The translations under genes were made by a program, and so were the position numbers. This document shows, one piece after another, positions 16,840-64,000 of a stretch of 64,000 bases of DNA. The stretch lies in NCBI GenBank assembly GCA_021209875.1, contig JAGYVD010000002.1:744001-808000 (forward strand), written 5' to 3'. Source of the DNA: Rosellinia necatrix (taxonomy: Eukaryota; Ascomycota; Sordariomycetes; Xylariales; Xylariaceae). Position 1 is the first letter of the stretch. Each line of letters starts with the position of its first letter. The notes beneath the pieces are model-generated. The model saw only the letters and a list, made by a program, of their open reading frames with translations, made no database searches and was not told the DNA's origin.

Positions 16840-18393
16840 TTAGCGGCGGGCGGCGAAGCTACCGCCGAGGTGCCGGGCGGCGTGGCCGTGGGAGTGCTTC
16901 GGGGCGCGGCGGTGCACGGATTTGGTGGGCTCGGGGGCCACGACGGTCGTGGTCACGGTCACGGTCACGATGTCCCAGACGGTGCTGATGCTCGGATAGG
17001 CACCGGCGCCGCCGTTCGCAGGCAGGCCGGGGGCTTCGGTGGGGGCCGGGGCGTCGACGGCGGGCTGCGAGACGGTGGGCTCCTCAACCGATGCACCGCC
17101 AGTGGCGCTGGTCGTAGGCTTAGCCTCGACCGTAGGGGAGGCGGCGCTGGTCTCCTCTGCGGCGGCAGCGCTGCTGCTGCTGCTGCTTGGTGCCGCGGAC
17201 GTGGCTACGGACGTGGCGGCTGAGCCCTTCTTGGTGGTGGACGAGGGCTGGGAGACGACAGGGGGGTCAACAGATCCACCGTCCACGCCACCCTTTCCGA
17301 AACCAGTGACGAGCTTGCCCACCACGGGGAGGTCAGAGACAATCTCACCGGTCTCGAGAATGCTGCCGTAGGCCGGCTCGATCTTGCAGTTGTTGTCCTC
17401 GTTCAAGCCGCCGGGGATCTGGGGGCACTTGTCCATGCCGATGTCACCGGCGTTGCATGTGTTGATAATGGTCTGTAGGGTGTTCTGGTCCCAGCCGGAG
17501 ATGAAGTCGGCGTGCGAGCTATAGCCGGTCGCGTCGCCGGAGGAGAGAACGAATGGCTGGGTCTTTCCATCGGGAGTCCAGTAGTCATCGAAAAGGGGAG
17601 TGTTCCAGTACACTTCAATGAAGATATGAGGGACGTGGACCCAGCCATCGGGGCAGTTCTGCTTGGCACCGGCGTTGGAGGGGAACTTCATGTTGGTCGT
17701 GTGGTCGTTCAGGCCAGCCTCGGGGTTGTAGCACGAGGGGAAGTGGATATCCTGGCGCAGGGGCGAAGCATAACCGTCGCAGGGGTACAGGGGAAAACCA
17801 GCACCGGAGCCCTGGTTGTTGGGGTCGACCATACCGGCACTGCTACCGTCTGAGTTGGTAGGGTATGAGGGCGGATTGTAGCTCGAGCGCGGGCAAGTCC
17901 ACTGCACAGGGTTGATGGGGATTCCGTTGTCGGGATCGAGATTGAGGGCACCACCAGACTTGGGGGCCGACCTCGTCTTCGCGTCTCCGCTCAACATCTT
18001 CAGACCGATAGGGAAGGGCTTGATCTGGTCATCGGTGGGCTCGAAGAAGTAGTAGACGTTCATGTAGAACAGAGGGACCTTCTGGAAGGTACCGTTCTTG
18101 GGATCCTGGAAGAAGAGAGAAGGAACCCAGTAGTTACTCTTGTCGTTCTTAATCTTGGCGGTCGTGCACGTAGAATCCATCAACTGATCTCCCTCAACAG
18201 TGGGACCAAAGCTGCTTCCACCCATGATGCTGTGGTAATGCGTAGAGATGGTGCCGGGGTTGACAACGGGGTCCATGGGACCCTCGGTCAAGAAACCATC
18301 GCCGTTGAATCGAAGGACTGCAAAGGTACGCTCGTCCTTGGCCGAGGCCAGGGTGGCCAATGAGGCCAAAGCTGTGGCGGTTGTAAATCTCAT
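16840..18393 (-). CDS. Secreted DUF1996-domain protein
   Basis: Single-exon gene of 517 aa whose biochemical role is unknown. A signal peptide (MRFTTATALASLATLASA) is followed by one DUF1996 domain (about residues 25-330) with its hallmark segments: LRFNGDGFLTEGPMDPVVNPG, STHYHSIMGGSSF, DSTCTTAKIKNDKSNYWVPSL and a histidine/aspartate-rich core that includes CPDGWVHVPHIF. Several paired cysteines suggest disulfides in the secreted form. The rest is Ser/Thr/Ala/Pro-rich, probably O-glycosylated or wall-associated, and ends with a His/Arg-rich tail (KHSHGHAARH). No GPI signal is evident at the C-terminus. The upstream region has long pyrimidine tracts on the coding strand (18550-18950), common in strong filamentous-fungal promoters. 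Start and stop are clear. Confidence 0.9.
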   Translation of the reverse strand: MRFTTATALASLATLASAKDERTFAVLRFNGDGFLTEGPMDPVVNPGTISTHYHSIMGGSSFGPTVEGDQLMDSTCTTAKIKNDKSNYWVPSLFFQDPKNGTFQKVPLFYMNVYYFFEPTDDQIKPFPIGLKMLSGDAKTRSAPKSGGALNLDPDNGIPINPVQWTCPRSSYNPPSYPTNSDGSSAGMVDPNNQGSGAGFPLYPCDGYASPLRQDIHFPSCYNPEAGLNDHTTNMKFPSNAGAKQNCPDGWVHVPHIFIEVYWNTPLFDDYWTPDGKTQPFVLSSGDATGYSSHADFISGWDQNTLQTIINTCNAGDIGMDKCPQIPGGLNEDNNCKIEPAYGSILETGEIVSDLPVVGKLVTGFGKGGVDGGSVDPPVVSQPSSTTKKGSAATSVATSAAPSSSSSSAAAAEETSAASPTVEAKPTTSATGGASVEEPTVSQPAVDAPAPTEAPGLPANGGAGAYPSISTVWDIVTVTVTTTVVAPEPTKSVHRRAPKHSHGHAARHLGGSFAARR

Positions 18394-53702: not shown

Positions 53703-55159
53703 CCTAAAATAGATCCCCTCGTCAGGGTGGTTAATGAGTCAATAGTATTGTGGTGCTTTTTATTCTTCCTTGCTTCTCTTTCATATTTCTTCTTTTTGTT
53801 CTCACATACAATACAATACATTCCGATCTGATCACGGCTCGAAAATGCCATCAAACAGTATCTCAACCGCGTGGACTTTTCAATATTTGCTTGTCCCGGT
53901 TCCTCCAGCTCAAGCCACAATACCACGTTCAGGACATGGCCGCCGTATAGATATACCGCAGAGAAATCCGCCCTCGCCGCATGTAGCAGTCGCAATTTTG
54001 GCTCGAGATTCTTTATTCCGTAAAGGGTAGTATAGTAGCCTCATGCCACGGCGTCCGATCGAGAGCGTTTCTGACTTGAGATCCAAGCCGCTTTGAAGCA
54101 TGCGTGCTACGTAATAGGGCAAGTTGCTTTTAGATGCCATCCCACAGGGTGTAGCTGGTATTAGTACATATATGATGGCCCCATTTCCTTTTACCTCTTC
54201 CCCTCTGTCCAAATTTCCTTCTTGTCATTTGTTTCCTCCGCTCCAAAATTCGCTGAAAATATCGCTCGACCCTACGACATCACAATTCCTGACCAAAAAG
54301 ATCCCTACAACTACAGAAGTTGTAACACCGACGAGCAGAACAAATCGCAAAATATCCAGGGGAGTGACTACCTCGAAAGGCTGTTCACTGAGCCTGGGGG
54401 AAATCGAAGGGTATAAGCACTGAAGTGATTGCAAAGAGATCTCCATGAGCTAGTAAGACCGAAGAACGTTCTAGTTATAATGGTCCTATGATAGACTAGC
54501 AACGATAGCAGCATCTAGGGGGTTCGTCAGCCCTAACGTTGCAGCTGATATCTTGAAGGAAATTCAGCCCCGACGTCTCGCCGGTGATTGGAAGAAGACT
54601 TGGAATTCTTCAGGCTTCATTTTGCTACCAACACTACTAAGATCTTTGCCTGCCCACCCACCAAAGGTCTGGTCTTTGTTGGGCGGATTAGTAGTGAAGC
54701 TATTCACAGTGGACGAACACACACTAAGCGATTTTCCTAGTTGATGCACACGTGGGCGGATTTATTATATGAGTCCAAAGTAAGAACGCTCCCAGCCTTA
54801 CTAACACTTCATCGCCGTCAGAATCTGAACCAGAAGTGAGAGGCTCTGCTTTGTATTTACTAGGGGTTTTGGAGCAGACCTCGTTATAGCCCCCTGACCA
54901 GCCTTGGCCACCAGCTTGCTTGCTCCTTATCATCGTCTGTATTTTCCCATAGCGCCACCAGCAATACATCGCCGTCTTTTCCTTAATCAAGTCTAGTCGT
55001 CCGAAAAAAAAAAAAAGGGAGACATATATCGTGCCACTACTATTACGAAGAGCGCCGAGAACTTTGTACTGATGAGCTTTATATTCTTAAAAGATAGCGT
55101 GCTGAACCAGTGTCACAGTTTATACTGCTAGTAGTTCTAGAAATAACTTATTGTCGCAG
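53703..55159. other. Transition zone with unrecognised ORF fragments
   Basis: Between the last supported gene and the AT-rich block. Three coherent-looking but start-less or unsupported frames occur: plus 54222-54416 (contains PYDITIPDQKDPYNYRS), plus about 54475-54744 (contains RRLAGDWKKTWNSSGF) and minus 54724-54990 (contains KYKAEPLTSGSDSDGDEVL). They may be pieces of a decayed gene or transposon. A run of A lies at 55003-55015. Confidence 0.35.
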
Positions 55160-55887
55160 AGGAACAGATGAATTATATAAGAACAGTGGAATTAAAGCCA
55201 AGCGATTAATGCAAGCAAGTTAATTTAAGCTTATAATAATAATCTATTTAATTAAGTTATATTATATAAAAATAATTAAACGAGCTAGCTTATATATATA
55301 GCTTAAAAAAATTATATTTTTTTTTTTTATAATTAGTTTATTTAAATAAATCGGACTTATATAAGCCTGACCGCTTATTTTAATAGCTATTAATTTAACT
55401 ATAAAGCTTATTACAGCATTTAAGCTATAATTACCAGCTTTTTATTAAAATTATTTATTTTATTATAATATATTTTTAAATCTAGTTAATTAAAGCTTAA
55501 TTTATAAAATAAATTTTAATAATTAAAAGCTTTTTTTTAAATAAAAATTATTATTTAAAATAATTAATAATAATAAAAAATATAATTATGAAAGCAATTA
55601 GCTAATAAATAATTTTATAAAAATAGTATAAATATTTTTAAATAAGTAGTAGTTTAGTTTTTTTTTTTTTAATTTTTAAATTAATTAATTAATTTATATA
55701 TAATTTTTAAATCGCTAATATTTTAGCATGCGTTAATTTTAAATGAATAATTATTTTTAATAATTTTAAATAATTTTTAAAATTATTTTTTTATAAATAA
55801 TTTTTTATTAAATATATGCTACAACAGGCAGTTTTATATATAATCGGTTGTTTTAATTAATATAAATAGTATTAAAAATTTATTATA

Positions 55888-56137
55888 AGTTACGGATAAC
55901 TGGTCCTTCCTGAAGCGTGCGTGGCACGCACGGGACATCCGTACACCTGTTGCCAACTGGTGCGCACAGACCAGCTGTAGCGCGCAGACTGGACCCACCC
56001 CACACACCTGCACTTAGCCAGAATTCTAGTGGGCTAATTCCTCCCACTTACTCTTTCCTTTTTTCATCTGTAGATTTTTCGTACAATACATCACTTATTG
56101 CTGGAGCCTTGACTTCTTATTTGTGACTGGTGCAACA
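55888..56137. repeat. Hairpin-bearing GC-balanced island A
   Basis: About 250 bp of ordinary base composition inside the AT-rich block. It contains a perfect inverted repeat CGTGCGTG (55916-55923) / CACGCACG (55925-55932) and the shared AATTCTAG motif at 56022-56029. Flanks share TTATA at both ends (55883-55887 and 56138-56142), a possible target duplication that is weak in such AT-rich DNA. Confidence 0.7.
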
Positions 56138-58479
56138 TTATATTTAGTTTTTTAAGCTGCTGTTTTTTTTTTTTTATAAATAATTTTTAAAAATTGTTTT
56201 AACTTTTTATATTATAATTAAAAAACTAATTTTGTTTTAAAATAAATATTTTTATATTATTACTACTACTACTATTATATTTACTGCTGCTGCTATTAAC
56301 GCTGCTGCTGTTTTATTTTTATGTTATTTATTTGCTTGCTTGTTTTTTTATTTTATTTTTATTACTGCTGCAGCTACTGCTGCTTAAACTATTACTGCTG
56401 CTAAAAAGCTAGGCTTAATTATTATTATTTTTGCTGTTAATTTTATTTTAAAAAAAGCTGCTAAGCTAATAATAATTAACGTTATTAATAAAACGTTAAT
56501 TAATATTTATAATATTAAAAATTAAACTTTAAGTTTAATAGTTTTATATTTAATTTAGCTTTATATATTTTTTAAAATCTTTTTATTAATTATATATATT
56601 AATTTTATTTTTAGTTTTTTTTAATAAGCTTTAAAGCTGATTTTTTTAATAAAAAGTTTTAAAGCTTTTTATACTGCTGCTATAACTTTTAATTAATAAC
56701 AAAGATTTTTTTTTTAATAAAAAGCCAGCTAGTCTAGCTTTTTATTAAGCTTATATTATATTAATAATAAATATATTAATAATAATAAAATTATTTTTAA
56801 AATATATGCTAAAAAAATTATTTTATAAAAATAAATTAAAAAATATTACTATTAAATTTAAGATTTTAATTAGCAGTATTATTTTTATATTAATAAATAT
56901 AAATATATTTTTATATAAATAGTTTTTTTTATAAGCGTTTTTTTTTATTAAAATTTTATATAGCTAAAAATAAACTAGTTTTTTATTATAGCTGTTTTTA
57001 AAACAGTATAAATTAAAAAAAACGTTTTAATAAGCTTTTTTTTTTAATTTAATTTTTAATATATTAGCTTATAAAATTTTTTAAATTTTTTAATTTTCTG
57101 CGCTTTTATTAAAGCTGCTATTTTTTAATTTAAATCTGCTTTTATTAAAAATAAAATAAAACAGGCTTAATTTTAGCTATAACAATTAAAAATAACAGCT
57201 TTAAAAAAAACTAAAAATAATAGTTTTAAGTTTAGCTGCTTTTTTTTTAAAAATAATAACGCTGTTATTAACGCCGATAATATTTCTGCTTGAGCAAATA
57301 AAAAAGTTATAACTGTTTTAGCAGCAAAAAAAGCTTTTGTTTTAATAAAAATAAATATTAAAAAAAAAGCAGTATTATTAAAATTTTCTTTTAGCTATTT
57401 ATATTATATAAAATAATGAAATATAACATAAATGTAATAATTTATAAGTTTAAAAATATTAATAAATATTATAAAATACTTAAAAATTATAATTGCTTTT
57501 TAAATCAAGAATTATAACATTTTGACATAAAAACTTTAAATTAAAAAAAATTATATATTTTAAGCTTTTTATAATATTTGCTAATTATTTAAAAGCTTTA
57601 ATCGTTAAAAATAACTTAAATTTTAAGCTATATATTTATATATAAAAAGAAAATACTCTTTTAATATAAAATTAGTTTTAATAATAATAATTCTACCGAT
57701 TTATTTATAAAAATAAATATTTAAAAATAATTTAAAAGATTTTTTAATTATAATTAATTAATTTTTATTGCTTATAAGGTATATTTTTTTTAATTTTATA
57801 ATTATAATTATAAAAATTAAATAAAATATAAAAATATTTAAATTAAACACGCAGTAAATTTTTATAAACTTGTTTATAAATATTTAAATAATTAAAAATA
57901 TTTTATTTTAAATAATGTTTTCTAATATTTTTGTTTTGCTTATATATTTTATATATTAATATATTATAATTTTATATTAATTTCTTTTTATAATTAATTT
58001 AATTATTAATATATTATTTTAATAAATAGTTTATATATTTTAAAATTAAATAAAATGTTTTAAAAAGCTTTTTAATACTATAATCTTTCTAGCTATAAAA
58101 ACAATGGTTTTAATTTTAGCTTTAATAGTTAATATTATAACAATATTTTATGTTATTATTTTTAAATAAAAATCTTTTAAAAATTAATATAATATATTTA
58201 TAAAATAATTTATAAGTTTTTTATTCTTTATAAATAAAGCGTTTTTAATAATTATAAAACTTATGTTTTTAAAAGCTTATTTTAAATTTAACCGCTAAAA
58301 ATCTAGTTTTATATAAATATTTAATTAAATAATTAATTACAGCATAATAATTAGCGCTTCAATCAATTAAAAACTATAATAATATTCCGATCATAAAAAC
58401 TATATTTATTTTTAATATTATTTCATTATATAGCGCTAATTTAATTTTTTTTTAAATAAGCTTTTATTTATTTTTTTAT

Positions 58480-58753
58480 AACTTAACCTAAGTTATATTG
58501 TTAGAGTAGGCAAGGGGTGCCAGGCTTGGCACCACCAGTTGCCCCACTGTAAGATTAGATAAGGTGGCCCAGGCCACCTGGGCTAGCCCACTTGGGCTAG
58601 GCCCACCCACCTACCTGTACTAGTAGGTGGAATTCTAGGACTGCACCTAGAATTCCACCATCTTCATCACCAACTACGTACAACACCACAATACAGACCA
58701 GCATACAGCAAAATACAGCTATTTACAGCTTCATACCCCTGACCAGACTTATC
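58480..58753. repeat. Hairpin-bearing GC-balanced island B
   Basis: About 270 bp. Hairpins: GGTGCCA (58516-58522) / TGGCACC (58527-58533), GGTGGCC-CA-GGCCACC (58564-58579), and GAATTCTAGG (58630-58639) / CCTAGAATTC (58646-58655). It carries the shared core AGATTAGATAAGGT at 58552-58565. Confidence 0.75.
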
Positions 58754-59379
58754 ATATATATAAAATTTTTATATAATAAAAAAATAGCCGGTATATAAGC
58801 TAAATTATTTAGTTTATAACGTTTAATAATTTTTTTAATATATTAATTATAAGCTAAAAAAATTATTTAACCTTTTTAATTATAGATTGTTTTAATTTTT
58901 AAAAATTATTTAATATTGCTTTATTTTTTAAATTTATATGTTTTTTAATATTTTATATAATTTTTAATTTTTAATTTCATAATTTTTATAATAAAGCATT
59001 AAAAGTTATTTATATAAAAATTATAAATATAAATCGATTTTAATATAAAATAAACAAAACTTTTTTAAAAAGCAATTATTTTTAGTATTTTAAATATTAA
59101 TAAAAACTGTTTATATTAAAAAGCTAAAAAATTTAAACTATATAATATTTTATTTAATAATATTGCTTTATTTAATTATAAAAAGGTTTTAAAACAACAG
59201 CATACTACTAGCGTTTTTTTTGTTTATAAAACATTTAAAAACATAAAATTATATTAAACTGAAGCATTTTTAAATTAAAATATATTATTAAAACTATTAT
59301 AAGCTTAAAAGTTTTTATAACAAATATTGTTATATAAGTTATTTATAATATATTTTTTAGCTAAAAATTATTTTATATA

Positions 59380-59610
59380 GTCACGGATGCCACACACCCC
59401 TGACTAGGACCCACCTGGAAAGGTCCTTCCGGTGGTGGGCCAAGGCCCACAATACCTACGTACAGCACGTGACCTAGCATCCGTGCACCCACAAACTAGT
59501 ACATACCTAATTTCTACCTAGATAGCTTTTTCGGTTCCCCATCTTCTGATCAATATACATATGGGACCCTAACTAGGAGCATTGCTTCTGTAAAGGACAC
59601 CAATCGTGAC
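59380..59610. repeat. Hairpin-bearing island C with terminal inverted repeats
   Basis: About 231 bp, starting GTCACG (59380-59385) and ending CGTGAC (59605-59610), flanked on both sides by ATATA. Internally CACGGATGC (59382-59390) pairs with GCATCCGTG (59477-59485), and GTGGGCC-AA-GGCCCAC forms a hairpin at 59435-59450. Confidence 0.75.
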
Positions 59611-60919
59611 ATATATTATAATATATAATTTATATTGTTTAATATATTTTTTTTTATTAAACTTATATTAAAATATTTATTTAAATAATAATAAAAATTT
59701 TAAAACTTTATTTAGTTTTATTATTTTAATTATTTTTTTAAACGATTTTATTTTTGTATAAATATTAATATAAAACTGCTTGCTTATTAAATAATTATAA
59801 AGATTTTTTTAGCTTTTTAATAATAGTTTTAATAAATTGTTTATATATATACGCTTTTTTAGCCTAGCATTTATTTTTTTTGTTTTATTTTAGTTTATTG
59901 CGGCTATAAATATTATATATAATATTTTATGTTTTTATTTTTTATAAAACGTTTGTTTTAATTAAATAAATAAGTTTTTATAAAGTTATATTAATTTTAA
60001 TTATTTAAAACTTTAATAATATTAGTTAAATAAATTATAATAGTAAATATAAACATATTATTATTTTTTTAATATTAAATTAAAGTTTTAGCTTTTAATT
60101 TTTAGCGTAAATAAAAGCTGTTAAAATATTATATATATATATATATATATATTTTGCTAGTTTATTTAATCGATTAATTAATTAATAAACTGTTTATATT
60201 TTAATAATTAATATTTTAAAGCTATTTTATAATATCTGATTATTTTAGTTTTAAAAAACGACTTTTTAAGCCTTTTTTTAAAGCTGATTAGCTTTATATT
60301 AAATAAAAAGCTTTATTTTATTTTATATAATCGTTTTATTTTTTACTTTTAAGCTTAAAAGCTTTTTTTAGCTTATAGTTTATTTTTTTATTTTTAACCT
60401 TTGGTTGTTTTTTAGTTTAAAAATATTTTAAAAAGTTATAAATTTATACAGCTAAATATTATAAGCGCCGCTTTTAACAGTTTATTTTTCAGCTGTTTTT
60501 ATTTTTAATTTTTATTCTGCTAGTTAGTTATTTTAAAGTTTATTAATTAAATTAAAACATTTTTATAAAAAACAGAAGTAATAAAAGTATTTTTAAATTT
60601 ATATGTAGCTATAAGTTAAATATTTTATATATTTAATATAGCAAAAAAATCTAAAAGCTTAAATTTAATTTTTATAATCTGTTTAAAAAAAGTTTTATTT
60701 ATTTTAATTATTAGTTTTTTGCTTTTTAATAAAAATATTTTTATTAAATTTAATGTTTTATATAATAATTATTTTATTTAATTAAAAATTTACACGCGGT
60801 ATAAATTATAAGCTTAATAATTTATAAAATATTTTATATAAATATAAACTTTAATTTTATATTTTTGCTAATTATATTTAGCAAATTTATTAATTTTTAT
60901 TAAATAAGCTTTATATTTA

Positions 60920-61102
60920 GTAAGGTTTACTAGGGGTAGTGTGGTTAAGTCTGTAAAAGTGTGATGTAGAATTAAGGAAGGAAGGGCTTCTGGTCCCGCA
61001 GGGACCAGAAGCCTTAGGCTAGTACCTTATCTAATCTACACAATCCTTATCTAGCTAGCTGCGCTAGCTAGATAAGGAGCCCCCCTCTTCCTGACTGTGA
61101 CA
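60920..61102. repeat. Double-hairpin island D
   Basis: About 183 bp. Two perfect hairpins: a 13-bp stem with GCA loop (60985-61013; arm GGCTTCTGGTCCC) and a 15-bp stem with TGC loop (61045-61077; arm CCTTATCTAGCTAGC). Between them, on the minus strand, lies the shared core AGATTAGATAAGGT (61024-61037). ATATTTA flanks both ends (60913-60919 and 61103-61109). Confidence 0.8.
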
Positions 61103-63284
61103 ATATTTATATATATATATTTTGTTTTAATTAAAATATAAATTGTTTATTAGCTTTTTAACGTGTTTTAAAATATATTAACAAAATAAATGCTTAAACT
61201 AGTTTTTTAAAACATAATAAAATATATAATAGCTTTTTATAGCAGAAAAAGCTTTATTATATAATTAAACTGCTGTTTTAACAGTTTTTAGCCAGAGGTT
61301 TTTTAAAAGTTCTGCTTTTTTTAATATTTTCATAGTTTAATTAATAATTTTTTAGCTAGCATGTTTTAACACGCTGTTTAATTTAAAAACTTTAATAAAT
61401 ATTAGTTTATTTTTAATTTTTAATATTTAATTTAACGTTTATATTTTATTAAACTTTTAATAATAATTACTTTTTTATTATTATTTTAAATTTTATATAT
61501 TAAAAGTTTAAATTATTTTATTATTTAATATTTAAATTTTATAATTAAATTAACAACTGTTTTTTTACCTTTAGTCAAAAAAAGAATATATAAATTATAC
61601 TTGTGATAGGCTATACCTGAAGGTACACTTATTAAAGTAGTAAATAAGGTCTATTTTTTAGCTAAATAGCCGAAGTTATAAACAATATAGGCGTAGCTTA
61701 TAAAACGTAGTTTTATAAAGCTGGTTAGTTCTAGTTATATTTATCCAGGTTTAATAGTTAATTTACAAGCTATTTAATAATTATTTAAAATAAAAATATA
61801 TAATAGTTTGCTTATATTAGCCTGTACGTTAATATTTTTTTATAAGCACTGCTTATAATATTATTTTTTTTTTTTACGTTTTTTTAAAAAAGTCGCGGGC
61901 TAGTCGTAAACTGTTTTATAGTTTTTATGCCCGTATTTTAAATTTATAAATAAAGTTTTTTTTTAGTTTAAAAAAAGTTTTTTTATTAAGTTTTTCTTTA
62001 TTTATAAGTTTTAATTTATATATAAATATATATTTTTATTAATTTAATCTGCTAAAATGTTCTAACGCTGTTTATAAACATTTTATAATATTATTTTTTT
62101 TTATTTATTACTTGCTAGTTTTTATATACTTTTTAAATATTTTAAATATTTACGCGCAACTGCTTTTTAAAATTCTGCTAGGCTTTATTTTTTACCGCTT
62201 TATATACAGCTATATAAAGCTTTTAAGCTGCCTGCTTTTTTTTTTTTTTTTAATAATAATTAATTTTATAAGTTATTTTAATTTTTATAATGTTTTAATT
62301 TATTGTTTAAGCCGTTTATAAATCGATTTTATTTTATTTTGCAAGCTGTTTAACGTTTTATTATTAATATTATATCTGTTTTTTATTATTACAGCCGGGC
62401 TTTATTTTTATTTATATTCTGGCCGGCCCGTCGGTTTAGCTTGTTAGCGCAGCTGTATTTTTTTATTTGTTAAAAGTTAGCTTTAAGCTGTTTATAATTT
62501 TTTTATTAATTAATTAAACGGTTGTTTTTTATTATATTAAAACAAGCTATTTTTAGCTATTATTTTTATATTAATTTTGTTAATAAAAAACAAAAATAAC
62601 GTTTTTTTAGTTTTATCTGCTAACTTTTTTTTTTTTTTTAGCGCCTAGCGCTGTTTTTATTTATTTATAAGCTTTATTAACTAAGTTTTAACGTTATTTA
62701 CGCCTTTTTTCTGCTTTTTGTTTAGCTTTTTTTTTATTTTTTTTTATTTATTTTTAAAAGTTTTTTTTTTAATTTTTATTTTTAAACTATTTATGCGCTA
62801 TTTATAATAGGTTTAAAAACCTTTTTTATTTGTTTTATCGCAAGCTAGCCTTTTATTAATATTTTACGCAGCTTTTTGTTTTGTTTTATTTATAAGCACG
62901 CCATGCTATATATATGCTGTATTAACGAGCTGGCAAGTAGCAACTTTTCAGTTTTTTATATTAATTAAATCAGTAATACGTTTTTTTTTTTTGCAAGTTT
63001 ATTACAAGCTAATTATAAAAAAAACGTGCTGTTATATATTATATATGTTATATAAACAAAAAAAAATATTTTAAAATAACCTAGCTGCTGTTATAACTGT
63101 TTATATTTTATATTAACGTTATTTATAAAAAAGTTTTTAATAATTTTAAGCTGTATTAAATATTTTTATATTTAATTAAAAAGATTTATATATATAATAA
63201 ATATATTTTTTATAAGTTTTTTTTTATTAGCTGTTTATTATATGCTTACAAGTTTTTTAAGTAGTTAAAATAAATTTGTTAAAG

Positions 63285-63490
63285 CTTTGATAGAGTCCCC
63301 GAAGGGGCCCGTATCAATCGAGCCAACGGCTCGTGTATTATTAGATTAGATTAGATAGGTTGCACAGGCTACGGCTGGCAACAGGTGGCCCACGGCCACC
63401 CCTGCAGGGGTTAATTCTAGACTTACTAGAATTCCCCACCTAGCAGAGGAATTAATAGAAGCATCTTTCTTTCTACCCTTATACCAATCT
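63285..63490. repeat. Hairpin-bearing GC-balanced island E
   Basis: About 205 bp. Hairpins: CGAGCC-AAC-GGCTCG (63320-63334), GGTGGCC-CAC-GGCCACC (63384-63400), the palindrome ACCCCTGCAGGGGT (63398-63411) and AATTCTAG (63413-63420) / CTAGAATT (63426-63433). It carries the shared core as AGATTAGATAGGT at 63348-63360. Confidence 0.75.
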
Positions 63491-64000
63491 TTTCAAGCTT
63501 GTTTAAATTTTTTAAAATATTTAACTTATATTAATAAAATATTAAAAATAAGTTTTAATTTTAATAATTATTATTTATATTTAGTTTATATATTATATAA
63601 ATAAAATTATTACTATTATTTAAAGCTATATTAAACAGTTTTTAAATAATAAAAAATTAAAGGCTGTTATATAAATATTTTGTTTGCTGTTCATGTTTTT
63701 TTATATATTATTTATTTAATAAAAAAATAATTGCTTTAAAAATAAATAATAATTTATATATTTTATTATAATTTATAAAACTGTTTATAAATTTTTCAAA
63801 GCTGTTATTTTTTTATAAAAGTTTTTTTAAGTTTATATAAACTATACTAAAAATATAAGTTTTATTTTAATATTAATTATAAATAGTTTAAAAAAAAAAA
63901 TTAATTAAAATTTAAAACGATATAACAAATAATATAGCTGCAGCTGCACTTTTTTTATTAAATATATTAGCTGTTTTTACGCTAATTATAAACAAAGCTT

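What the first reader, a model, noticed from the sequence alone, without database searches (positions are those of the whole stretch)
55888..63490. A family of hairpin-rich, non-RIP islands scattered in an AT-rich block
Five islands (55888-56137, 58480-58753, 59380-59610, 60920-61102, 63285-63490) of about 180-275 bp stand out sharply from the AT-rich matrix. Each has perfect short-loop hairpins. Islands B, D (minus strand) and E share the core AGATTAGATA(A)GGT in the same order: hairpin, core, hairpin, AATTCTA. A also has AATTCTAG and C a weaker AATTTCTA. They are rich in CpA and TpG, unlike the matrix, so they either arrived after RIP or escaped it. RIP normally leaks into neighbouring DNA, which makes late insertion more attractive. 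I infer a non-autonomous mobile element or a conserved structural RNA/DNA element; this resembles in style the double-hairpin elements of fungal mitochondrial DNA but here lies in a nuclear-looking context.
Basis: partly seen in the sequence, partly recalled or inferred. Interest (0 to 1): 0.85.

Follow-up and report, generated by a model that had tools for sequence, protein, structure and literature searches.

The report
Retrotransposon end-repeats spared by RIP
The five GC-richer islands in this mutated, AT-rich stretch of a fungal chromosome look like lone end-repeats (solo LTRs) left by retrotransposons, probably still readable because they are too short for the fungus's repeat-mutating defence, which is a known phenomenon.

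Summary
The islands are real and dispersed: each has at least dozens of relatives in the same 49 Mb fungal genome (Xylariaceae or close, by protein similarity; species unnamed). Each window copy sits between exact 5-bp target-site duplications. A, B and C were found as the two LTRs of longer elements. A and C flank elements with RIP-broken reverse transcriptase; the bases after their 5' LTR complement a stretch inside the LTR, as in Tf1-type self-priming (for C only against the window copy). B flanks 2.4-2.8 kb elements that carry a gag-like frame and no polymerase. D and E share ends, duplications and, with B, a promoter-like layout, but no full element was found for them. So I read the islands as solo LTRs, not MITEs or a structural RNA.

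Solo LTRs that lack RIP marks are published for Podospora crapaud. Here even the LTRs of full-length B elements stay legible (84-94% against 65-77% inside). Mutation is concentrated on the inner side of 5' LTRs; in 3' LTRs the opposite tilt is weak. I read this as RIP fading at the edge of a repeat.

Folding excess is strong in B, D and E, marginal in C, absent in A. Verdict: new members of a known kind, with a useful side-result on RIP.

The parts
55888..56137 (+). Island A: solo LTR (AGTTAC..CAACA, 250 bp) of a Gypsy-type element; target duplication ttata at 55883-55887 and 56138-56142
   Evidence: full element with two such LTRs at C1:1078851-1085661
56022..56028 (+). AATTCTA box in A, 44 bp before the inferred RNA start
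   Evidence: promoter role inferred
56066..56075 (+). ATCTGTAGAT in A, complement of the 10 bases that follow the 5' LTR in the full-length element (inferred RNA start, self-priming)
58499..58754 (+). Island B: solo LTR (TG..CA, 256 bp) of a gag-only element; target duplication tatat at 58494-58498 and 58755-58759
   Evidence: full elements in L006/L007, L069, L070
58552..58565 (+). Core AGATTAGATAAGGT in B
58631..58637 (+). AATTCTA box in B
59379..59611 (+). Island C: solo LTR (AGTCAC..GTGACA, 233 bp); target duplication tatat at 59374-59378 and 59612-59616
   Evidence: full element at C7:1546172-1552869 with an RVT_1 match holding six stops
59541..59550 (+). ATCTTCTGAT in C, complement of the 10 bases after the 5' LTR of the full-length C element
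60918..61102 (-). Island D: LTR-like (TG..TA on the minus strand, 185 bp); target duplication atatt at 60913-60917 and 61103-61107
   Evidence: no full element found
61024..61037 (-). Core AGATTAGATAAGGT in D
60967..60973 (-). AATTCTA box in D
63288..63495 (+). Island E: LTR-like (TG..CA, 208 bp); target duplication agctt at 63283-63287 and 63496-63500
   Evidence: no full element found
63348..63359 (+). Core variant AGATTAGATAGG in E
63413..63419 (+). AATTCTA box in E

Best explanation
The islands are solo LTRs. Retrotransposons were inserted by integrase into DNA that RIP had already made AT-rich, giving 5-bp target duplications (duplications shown). Recombination between the two LTRs of a young element removed its interior and left one LTR (inferred). 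At 185-256 bp the solos are probably below the length at which RIP recognises repeats and stay unmutated, while copies that kept their interior were mutated (contrast shown for B; cause inferred). A and C are LTRs of Gypsy-type elements with a Tf1-like self-priming layout. B is the LTR of a non-autonomous element with a gag-like frame. D and E are LTRs of relatives of B whose interiors were not found (inferred). The shared AATTCTA box lies 44 bp (A) and 31 bp (C) before the inferred RNA start and is read as a core promoter element; the AGATTAGATAAGGT core is read as an upstream activator site (both inferred). In full-length B elements mutation also fades towards the outer edge, clearly in 5' LTRs and weakly in 3' LTRs, so these LTRs stay legible too.
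For: Many copies of each island in the genome. Exact 5-bp duplications at fixed ends: A 20 of 30, B 6 of 8, C 19 of 24 with ends found, E 21 of 21, D 21 of 27; shuffled flanks give 1.0%. B copies as identical LTRs of one element with shared duplication, primer-like site and a 411-codon frame; two more full elements. A pair with shared duplication around an RVT_1 match over cut-off with 3 stops. C pair with shared duplication around an RVT_1 match over cut-off with 6 stops. In-LTR complement of the post-LTR bases: A 10 nt, F 11 nt. 12 B solos carry 0-8 C/G losses, 19 3' LTRs of full elements 4-34.
Against: No full-length element was found for D or E. Ends are canonical TG..CA only in B and E; A and C read AG..CA, D TG..TA. 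A, B and C reach exact duplications less often when ends are set by length alone (18 of 39, 11 of 34, 11 of 30; that set includes LTRs of full elements). C has only a 7-nt in-LTR complement against its own mutated LTR. B's primer site was not matched to any tRNA. LTR-LTR recombination itself was not observed.
Confidence: 0.88

Rival explanations
1. Single-LTR mobile units: the 185-256 bp islands move as units, using retrotransposon-type ends, without passing through a full-length stage.
For: Solos are nearly unmutated while LTRs of full elements are not; no full-length D or E found; they outnumber legible full B elements (9 same-strand pairs at 2.1-2.8 kb among the first 100 of 173 core places).
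Against: A, B and C occur as paired LTRs with a shared outer duplication; a single LTR holds no primer site or interior to be reverse-transcribed from; at least one unmutated full B element with identical LTRs exists, so young full elements are available as parents.
Confidence: 0.07
2. MITEs: short derivatives of a DNA transposon.
For: Short, non-coding, many copies, fixed-length target duplication; ends of C share an imperfect inverted repeat (GTCACG).
Against: No long terminal inverted repeats are seen; the same sequences flank reverse-transcriptase or gag-like interiors as direct repeats.
Confidence: 0.03
3. A conserved structural RNA or DNA hairpin element whose function keeps it unmutated.
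For: Strong folding excess in B, D and E and the shared order hairpin, core, hairpin, AATTCTA.
Against: No Rfam family at gathering level. One-sided breaks outnumber two-sided kept pairs in every family (A 99 against 20, B 61/9, C 111/45, D 61/7, E 21/3) and nearly all two-sided changes are G-C to A-T, as C-to-T mutation on both arms gives. Ends and copies are explained by LTRs. A shows no folding excess.
Confidence: 0.02

Closest known systems
Solo LTRs of crapaud in Podospora (PMC10787394; section 11 and passages seen)
   Same: Solo or fragment LTRs mostly without RIP marks beside RIP-mutated full copies; small size given as the likely reason; LTR-LTR recombination before RIP, or gene conversion, offered as explanations.
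   Different: There LTRs are 339-443 bp and full-copy LTRs fall into high-GC and low-GC groups; here LTRs are 185-256 bp, several families, and the LTRs of full B elements stay legible with an inner-side bias of mutation.
Tf1-type self-priming LTR retrotransposons (mechanism as described in passages of PMC5445492)
   Same: In A and F, and in C against the window copy, the bases right after the 5' LTR are the exact complement of a stretch inside the LTR.
   Different: RNA start not mapped; no phylogeny made.
Fungal GalEa Copia elements with a Conserved Hairpin Site (PMC5445492, passages)
   Same: Conserved hairpins tied to fungal LTR elements.
   Different: That hairpin lies directly after the 5' LTR; here the hairpins lie inside the LTR, mostly upstream of the AATTCTA box.
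Non-autonomous LTR elements (TRIM, gag-only types; recalled, and listed only)
   Same: B elements are short, with LTRs and a primer-like site, and no polymerase seen in three complete copies.
   Different: B keeps a gag-like frame, so it is not a TRIM in the strict sense; its helper is unknown.

Membership tests
Solo LTR of an LTR retrotransposon | Target duplication of fixed 4-6 bp at fixed ends | tested here: met
   5 bp; all five window copies
Solo LTR of an LTR retrotransposon | TG..CA termini | tested here: inconclusive
   Met in B and E; A and C read AG..CA, D reads TG..TA
Solo LTR of an LTR retrotransposon | Same sequence found as direct repeats around an interior | tested here: inconclusive
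   Met for A, B, C; not found for D and E
Ty3/Gypsy element (A, C) | Reverse transcriptase, zinc knuckle, protease, integrase in Gypsy order | tested here: inconclusive
   RVT_1 over cut-off in both; single frame pieces of A reach RVT_1 and zf-CCHC only below cut-off; protease read by eye; integrase order not tested
Tf1-type self-priming | Site after the 5' LTR complementary to the RNA 5' end | tested here: inconclusive
   Complement inside the LTR: A 10 nt (1 of 2000 shuffles), F 11 nt; C 7 nt in its own LTR, 10 nt in the window copy; RNA 5' end not mapped
Non-autonomous gag-only element (B) | LTRs, primer site and gag without polymerase | tested here: inconclusive
   LTRs and a TGG-starting site shown; three complete copies have room for no polymerase; gag identity rests on layout and one named relative, with no Pfam match over cut-off
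RIP | C-to-T losses in repeats biased to CpA | tested here: met
   L069 interior CpA 98/243, CpC 39/291, CpG 33/180, CpT 52/255; weaker in L070: 43/240, 27/287, 28/174, 31/247
MITE | Long terminal inverted repeats | tested here: not met
   Ends compared by eye; only short imperfect matches
Known structural RNA | Rfam match at gathering score | tested here: not met
   (55600-64000)

The most novel reading that the evidence does not exclude
RIP does not act evenly over a dispersed repeat: it fades over its outer few hundred bases, so the LTRs (promoter and integrase ends) of RIP-broken elements are kept in near-working order. Broken elements could then still be transcribed and moved in trans, and the genome fills with legible solo LTRs. 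The hairpin and core layout shared by B, D and E would be a structured U3 module kept across otherwise dissimilar LTRs.
Probability: 0.3. Interest if true: 0.6.

Novelty: new member of a known kind. Interest (0 to 1): 0.38.

Why it matters
It turns a puzzling pattern of unmutated islands into an ordinary, checkable thing and warns against reading such islands as MITEs or structural RNAs. The side-result, a difference between 5' and 3' LTRs in where RIP-type changes fall, gives a natural measurement of how RIP treats the edges of a repeat. That bears on how repeats are recognised and on why LTR promoters outlive the genome's defence.

Tried and rejected
MITE, structural RNA, mitochondrial-type double-hairpin element and unmutated ancestral remnant were considered and set aside. 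A link of the AT-rich matrix to the interiors of A, B, C or F: no match at E 1e-4. An E primer site like B's: no exact match. E pairs through a diverged query: none among the 40 listed. Of 17 RVT_1 matches, four outside contig C12 hold no stop; I looked at the flanks of one of them only (1463-codon frame), and it carries a different LTR, F, not A-E; the other three were not followed. GATA-like sites: D 3 (9 of 500 shuffles reach it), B 2 (31), E 2 (38), C 1 (185), A and F 0: weak. My first end for D was one base off and gave 0 of 19 duplications; corrected. The gradient of 'solo' copies is not used, because one search showed that the three most mutated of them are LTRs of longer elements. Paper searches bearing on prior art.
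Full report
What was checked. From about 55,000 to the window's end GC is 0.12-0.23 per kb, against 0.45-0.70 before. Five islands of 185-256 bp with GC 0.47-0.51 stand in it. CpA and TpG are depleted in the matrix (0.53, 0.63) and not in the islands (1.15, 1.00).

Copies. A search of the whole genome (49.1 Mb, 12 contigs, unnamed) finds each island many times. Only 40 candidates per search are scored, from first-look lists of 303 (A), 183 (B), 47 (C), 295 (D) and 187 (E), which are not verified counts. Identity of the 40 best to the window copy, itself left out, is 90-97% (A), 95-98% (B), 73-96% (C), 92-99% (D) and 92-99% (E). The core of B and D occurs 173 times against once for the reversed control.

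Ends and target duplications. Each window copy lies between exact 5-bp repeats of matrix sequence. In the genome the exact repeat is seen in 6 of 8 B copies (the other two are the LTRs of one element), 20 of 30 A, 19 of 24 C (no ends found in 6 further C loci), 21 of 21 E including the window copy and 21 of 27 D (0 of 19, where the end was one base off). With ends set by length alone, 85 of 163 copies of six LTR families have it (A 18/39, B 11/34, C 11/30, D 21/27, E 23/26, F 1/7), and flanks shuffled between copies give 1.0%. The duplicated bases are mostly AT-rich, so these insertions came after the matrix was mutated.

What B belongs to. Two B copies (C2:1363755-1366162) face the same way, are identical over 256 bp, share the duplication gttgt and enclose an unmutated interior that begins AATTGGTGCC and has a 411-codon frame. 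I take the site as a tRNA-type primer site from its TGG (recalled); no tRNA was matched, and a 7-nt complement also lies in the LTR. Pfam gives only matches below cut-off, mostly coiled-coil. The one database relative is a 'putative probable transposable element' of Rosellinia necatrix, 73% identical over 59% of the query. I call the frame gag-like from its layout (coiled coil, an LLRGQALEWW stretch in the relative, RG-rich tail); that is recalled knowledge, not a test. L069 and L070 are further complete B elements of about 2.75 kb with duplication gtttt. The interior has 57 matching pieces from 40 scored candidates, apart from itself at 65-86%.

What A and C belong to. Two A copies on C1 bound a 6.8 kb element with duplication attat and a purine tract beside the AGTTAC end. 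It holds an RVT_1 match over cut-off with three stops on the fitting strand; single frame pieces reach RVT_1 and zf-CCHC only below cut-off. The 10 bases after its 5' LTR are the exact complement of a stretch in that LTR; 1 of 2000 shuffled LTRs gives as much. The place corresponds to positions 179-188 of the window copy. Two C copies on C7 (1546172 and 1552644) share duplication gttat and lie either side of an RVT_1 match with six stops. Bases after that 5' LTR match 7 nt of its own mutated LTR, but 10 nt of the window's C. The interior next to A's 3' LTR has 40 scored candidates of 105, the others at 68-79%. A stop-free RVT_1 frame elsewhere carries another LTR, F, with an 11-nt complement of the same kind.

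D and E share with B the core, the AATTCTA box and 5-bp duplications, but no full element was found, so their place is inferred. In the first 100 of 173 core places there are 9 same-strand pairs 2.1-2.8 kb apart.

Promoter-like layout. AATTCTA is exact in A, B, D and E at positions 126-135 and one letter off in C at 132; shuffles of A-E contain it in 6-14 of 500. It lies 44 bp (A) and 31 bp (C) before the inferred RNA start. The core holds a GATA-factor-like site (recalled consensus); enrichment is weak.

Hairpins. Folding excess is strong for B, D and E, marginal for C and absent for A. Within families (37 A, 20 B, 25 C, 25 D, 25 E copies) one-sided breaks outnumber two-sided kept pairs, and the latter are nearly all G-C to A-T. 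This gives no sign of selection on the hairpins in these copies.

RIP. In L069 the interior lost CpA at 98 of 243 sites and other C/G at 124 of 726, its LTRs 11 of 86 and 4 of 172. In L070 the interior lost 43 of 240 and 86 of 708, the LTRs 5 of 84 and 3 of 168; there the CpA bias is weak, so part of the difference may be lineage divergence. All 17 further 3' ends that I fetched have a legible LTR, 84-94% to the window copy, beside an interior of 65-77% to the unmutated element; these are not the same reference. All 20 further 5' ends fetched align too, 84-96% over aligned bases. C/G losses by quarter of the LTR from the TG end: 22 5' LTRs 4, 8, 40, 23%; 19 3' LTRs 16, 9, 13, 6%. By halves: 5' 6.4 and 32.4%; 3' 12.0 and 9.3%. 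So the inner side is hit much more in 5' LTRs, and the opposite tilt in 3' LTRs is weak and not even. The difference between the two sets runs with position (rank correlation -0.66; 0 of 2000 label permutations as low). The two sets are not fully matched by insertion. GC also falls inwards in the A and C elements, where no unmutated reference exists. I read this as RIP fading at the edge of a repeat. The one search for this in print returned one unrelated paper; I recall edge effects being mentioned for Neurospora.

Solo copies. Of 15 B copies met outside the complete elements, 3 are flanked by primer-site or pre-LTR sequence and so belong to longer elements (35, 14, 38 losses). The other 12 have 0, 0, 0, 0, 0, 0, 1, 3, 2, 8, 6, 2. 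Five of the 12 were picked as best matches; the other seven were neighbours of A or C copies. 3' LTRs of full elements have 4-34. This fits solo formation before RIP, one of two options offered for crapaud; that paper also cites a size limit of about 400 bp, not strict (PMC10787394).

Host. A window gene (16840-18393, minus) has its best named relatives in Xylaria, Nemania and other Xylariales (to 80%; 120 of 471 matches listed), so the host is in or near Xylariaceae.

Verdict. Real and mobile, but of a known kind. The added value is the edge profile of RIP-type changes and the shared U3 layout of B, D and E.

Noticed in passing
L006/L007 (C2:1363755-1366162) against L069, L070 and P0001: The unmutated B element lacks some 360 bp inside its gag-like frame that relatives have, yet has identical LTRs, so it seems to have been moved recently with help from elsewhere.
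   Followed up: partly
LTRs of full-length B elements: The inner half of 5' LTRs is hit far harder (32%) than the inner half of 3' LTRs (12%); this asymmetry is unexplained.
   Followed up: no
window 55050-64000, matrix: Matrix keeps CpG at 2.15 and GpC at 6.57 of expectation while CpA is depleted; islands have CpG at only 0.40.
   Followed up: no
window 58480-58494: AACTTAACCTAAGTT, a near-perfect palindrome, lies just left of island B's target duplication; it is not part of the LTR.
   Followed up: no
L053, and C6:157029-157929: Nested insertions: a C copy inside a B LTR with duplication of B sequence, and an E copy between two pieces of an A-type interior.
   Followed up: partly
L127/L128 (C10): A further LTR family, F (about 270 bp, identical pair, self-priming-like site), flanks an element with a stop-free RVT_1 frame.
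   Followed up: partly
contig C12: RVT_1 matches there are interrupted by TGA only, as expected of a mitochondrial contig read with the standard code.
   Followed up: no
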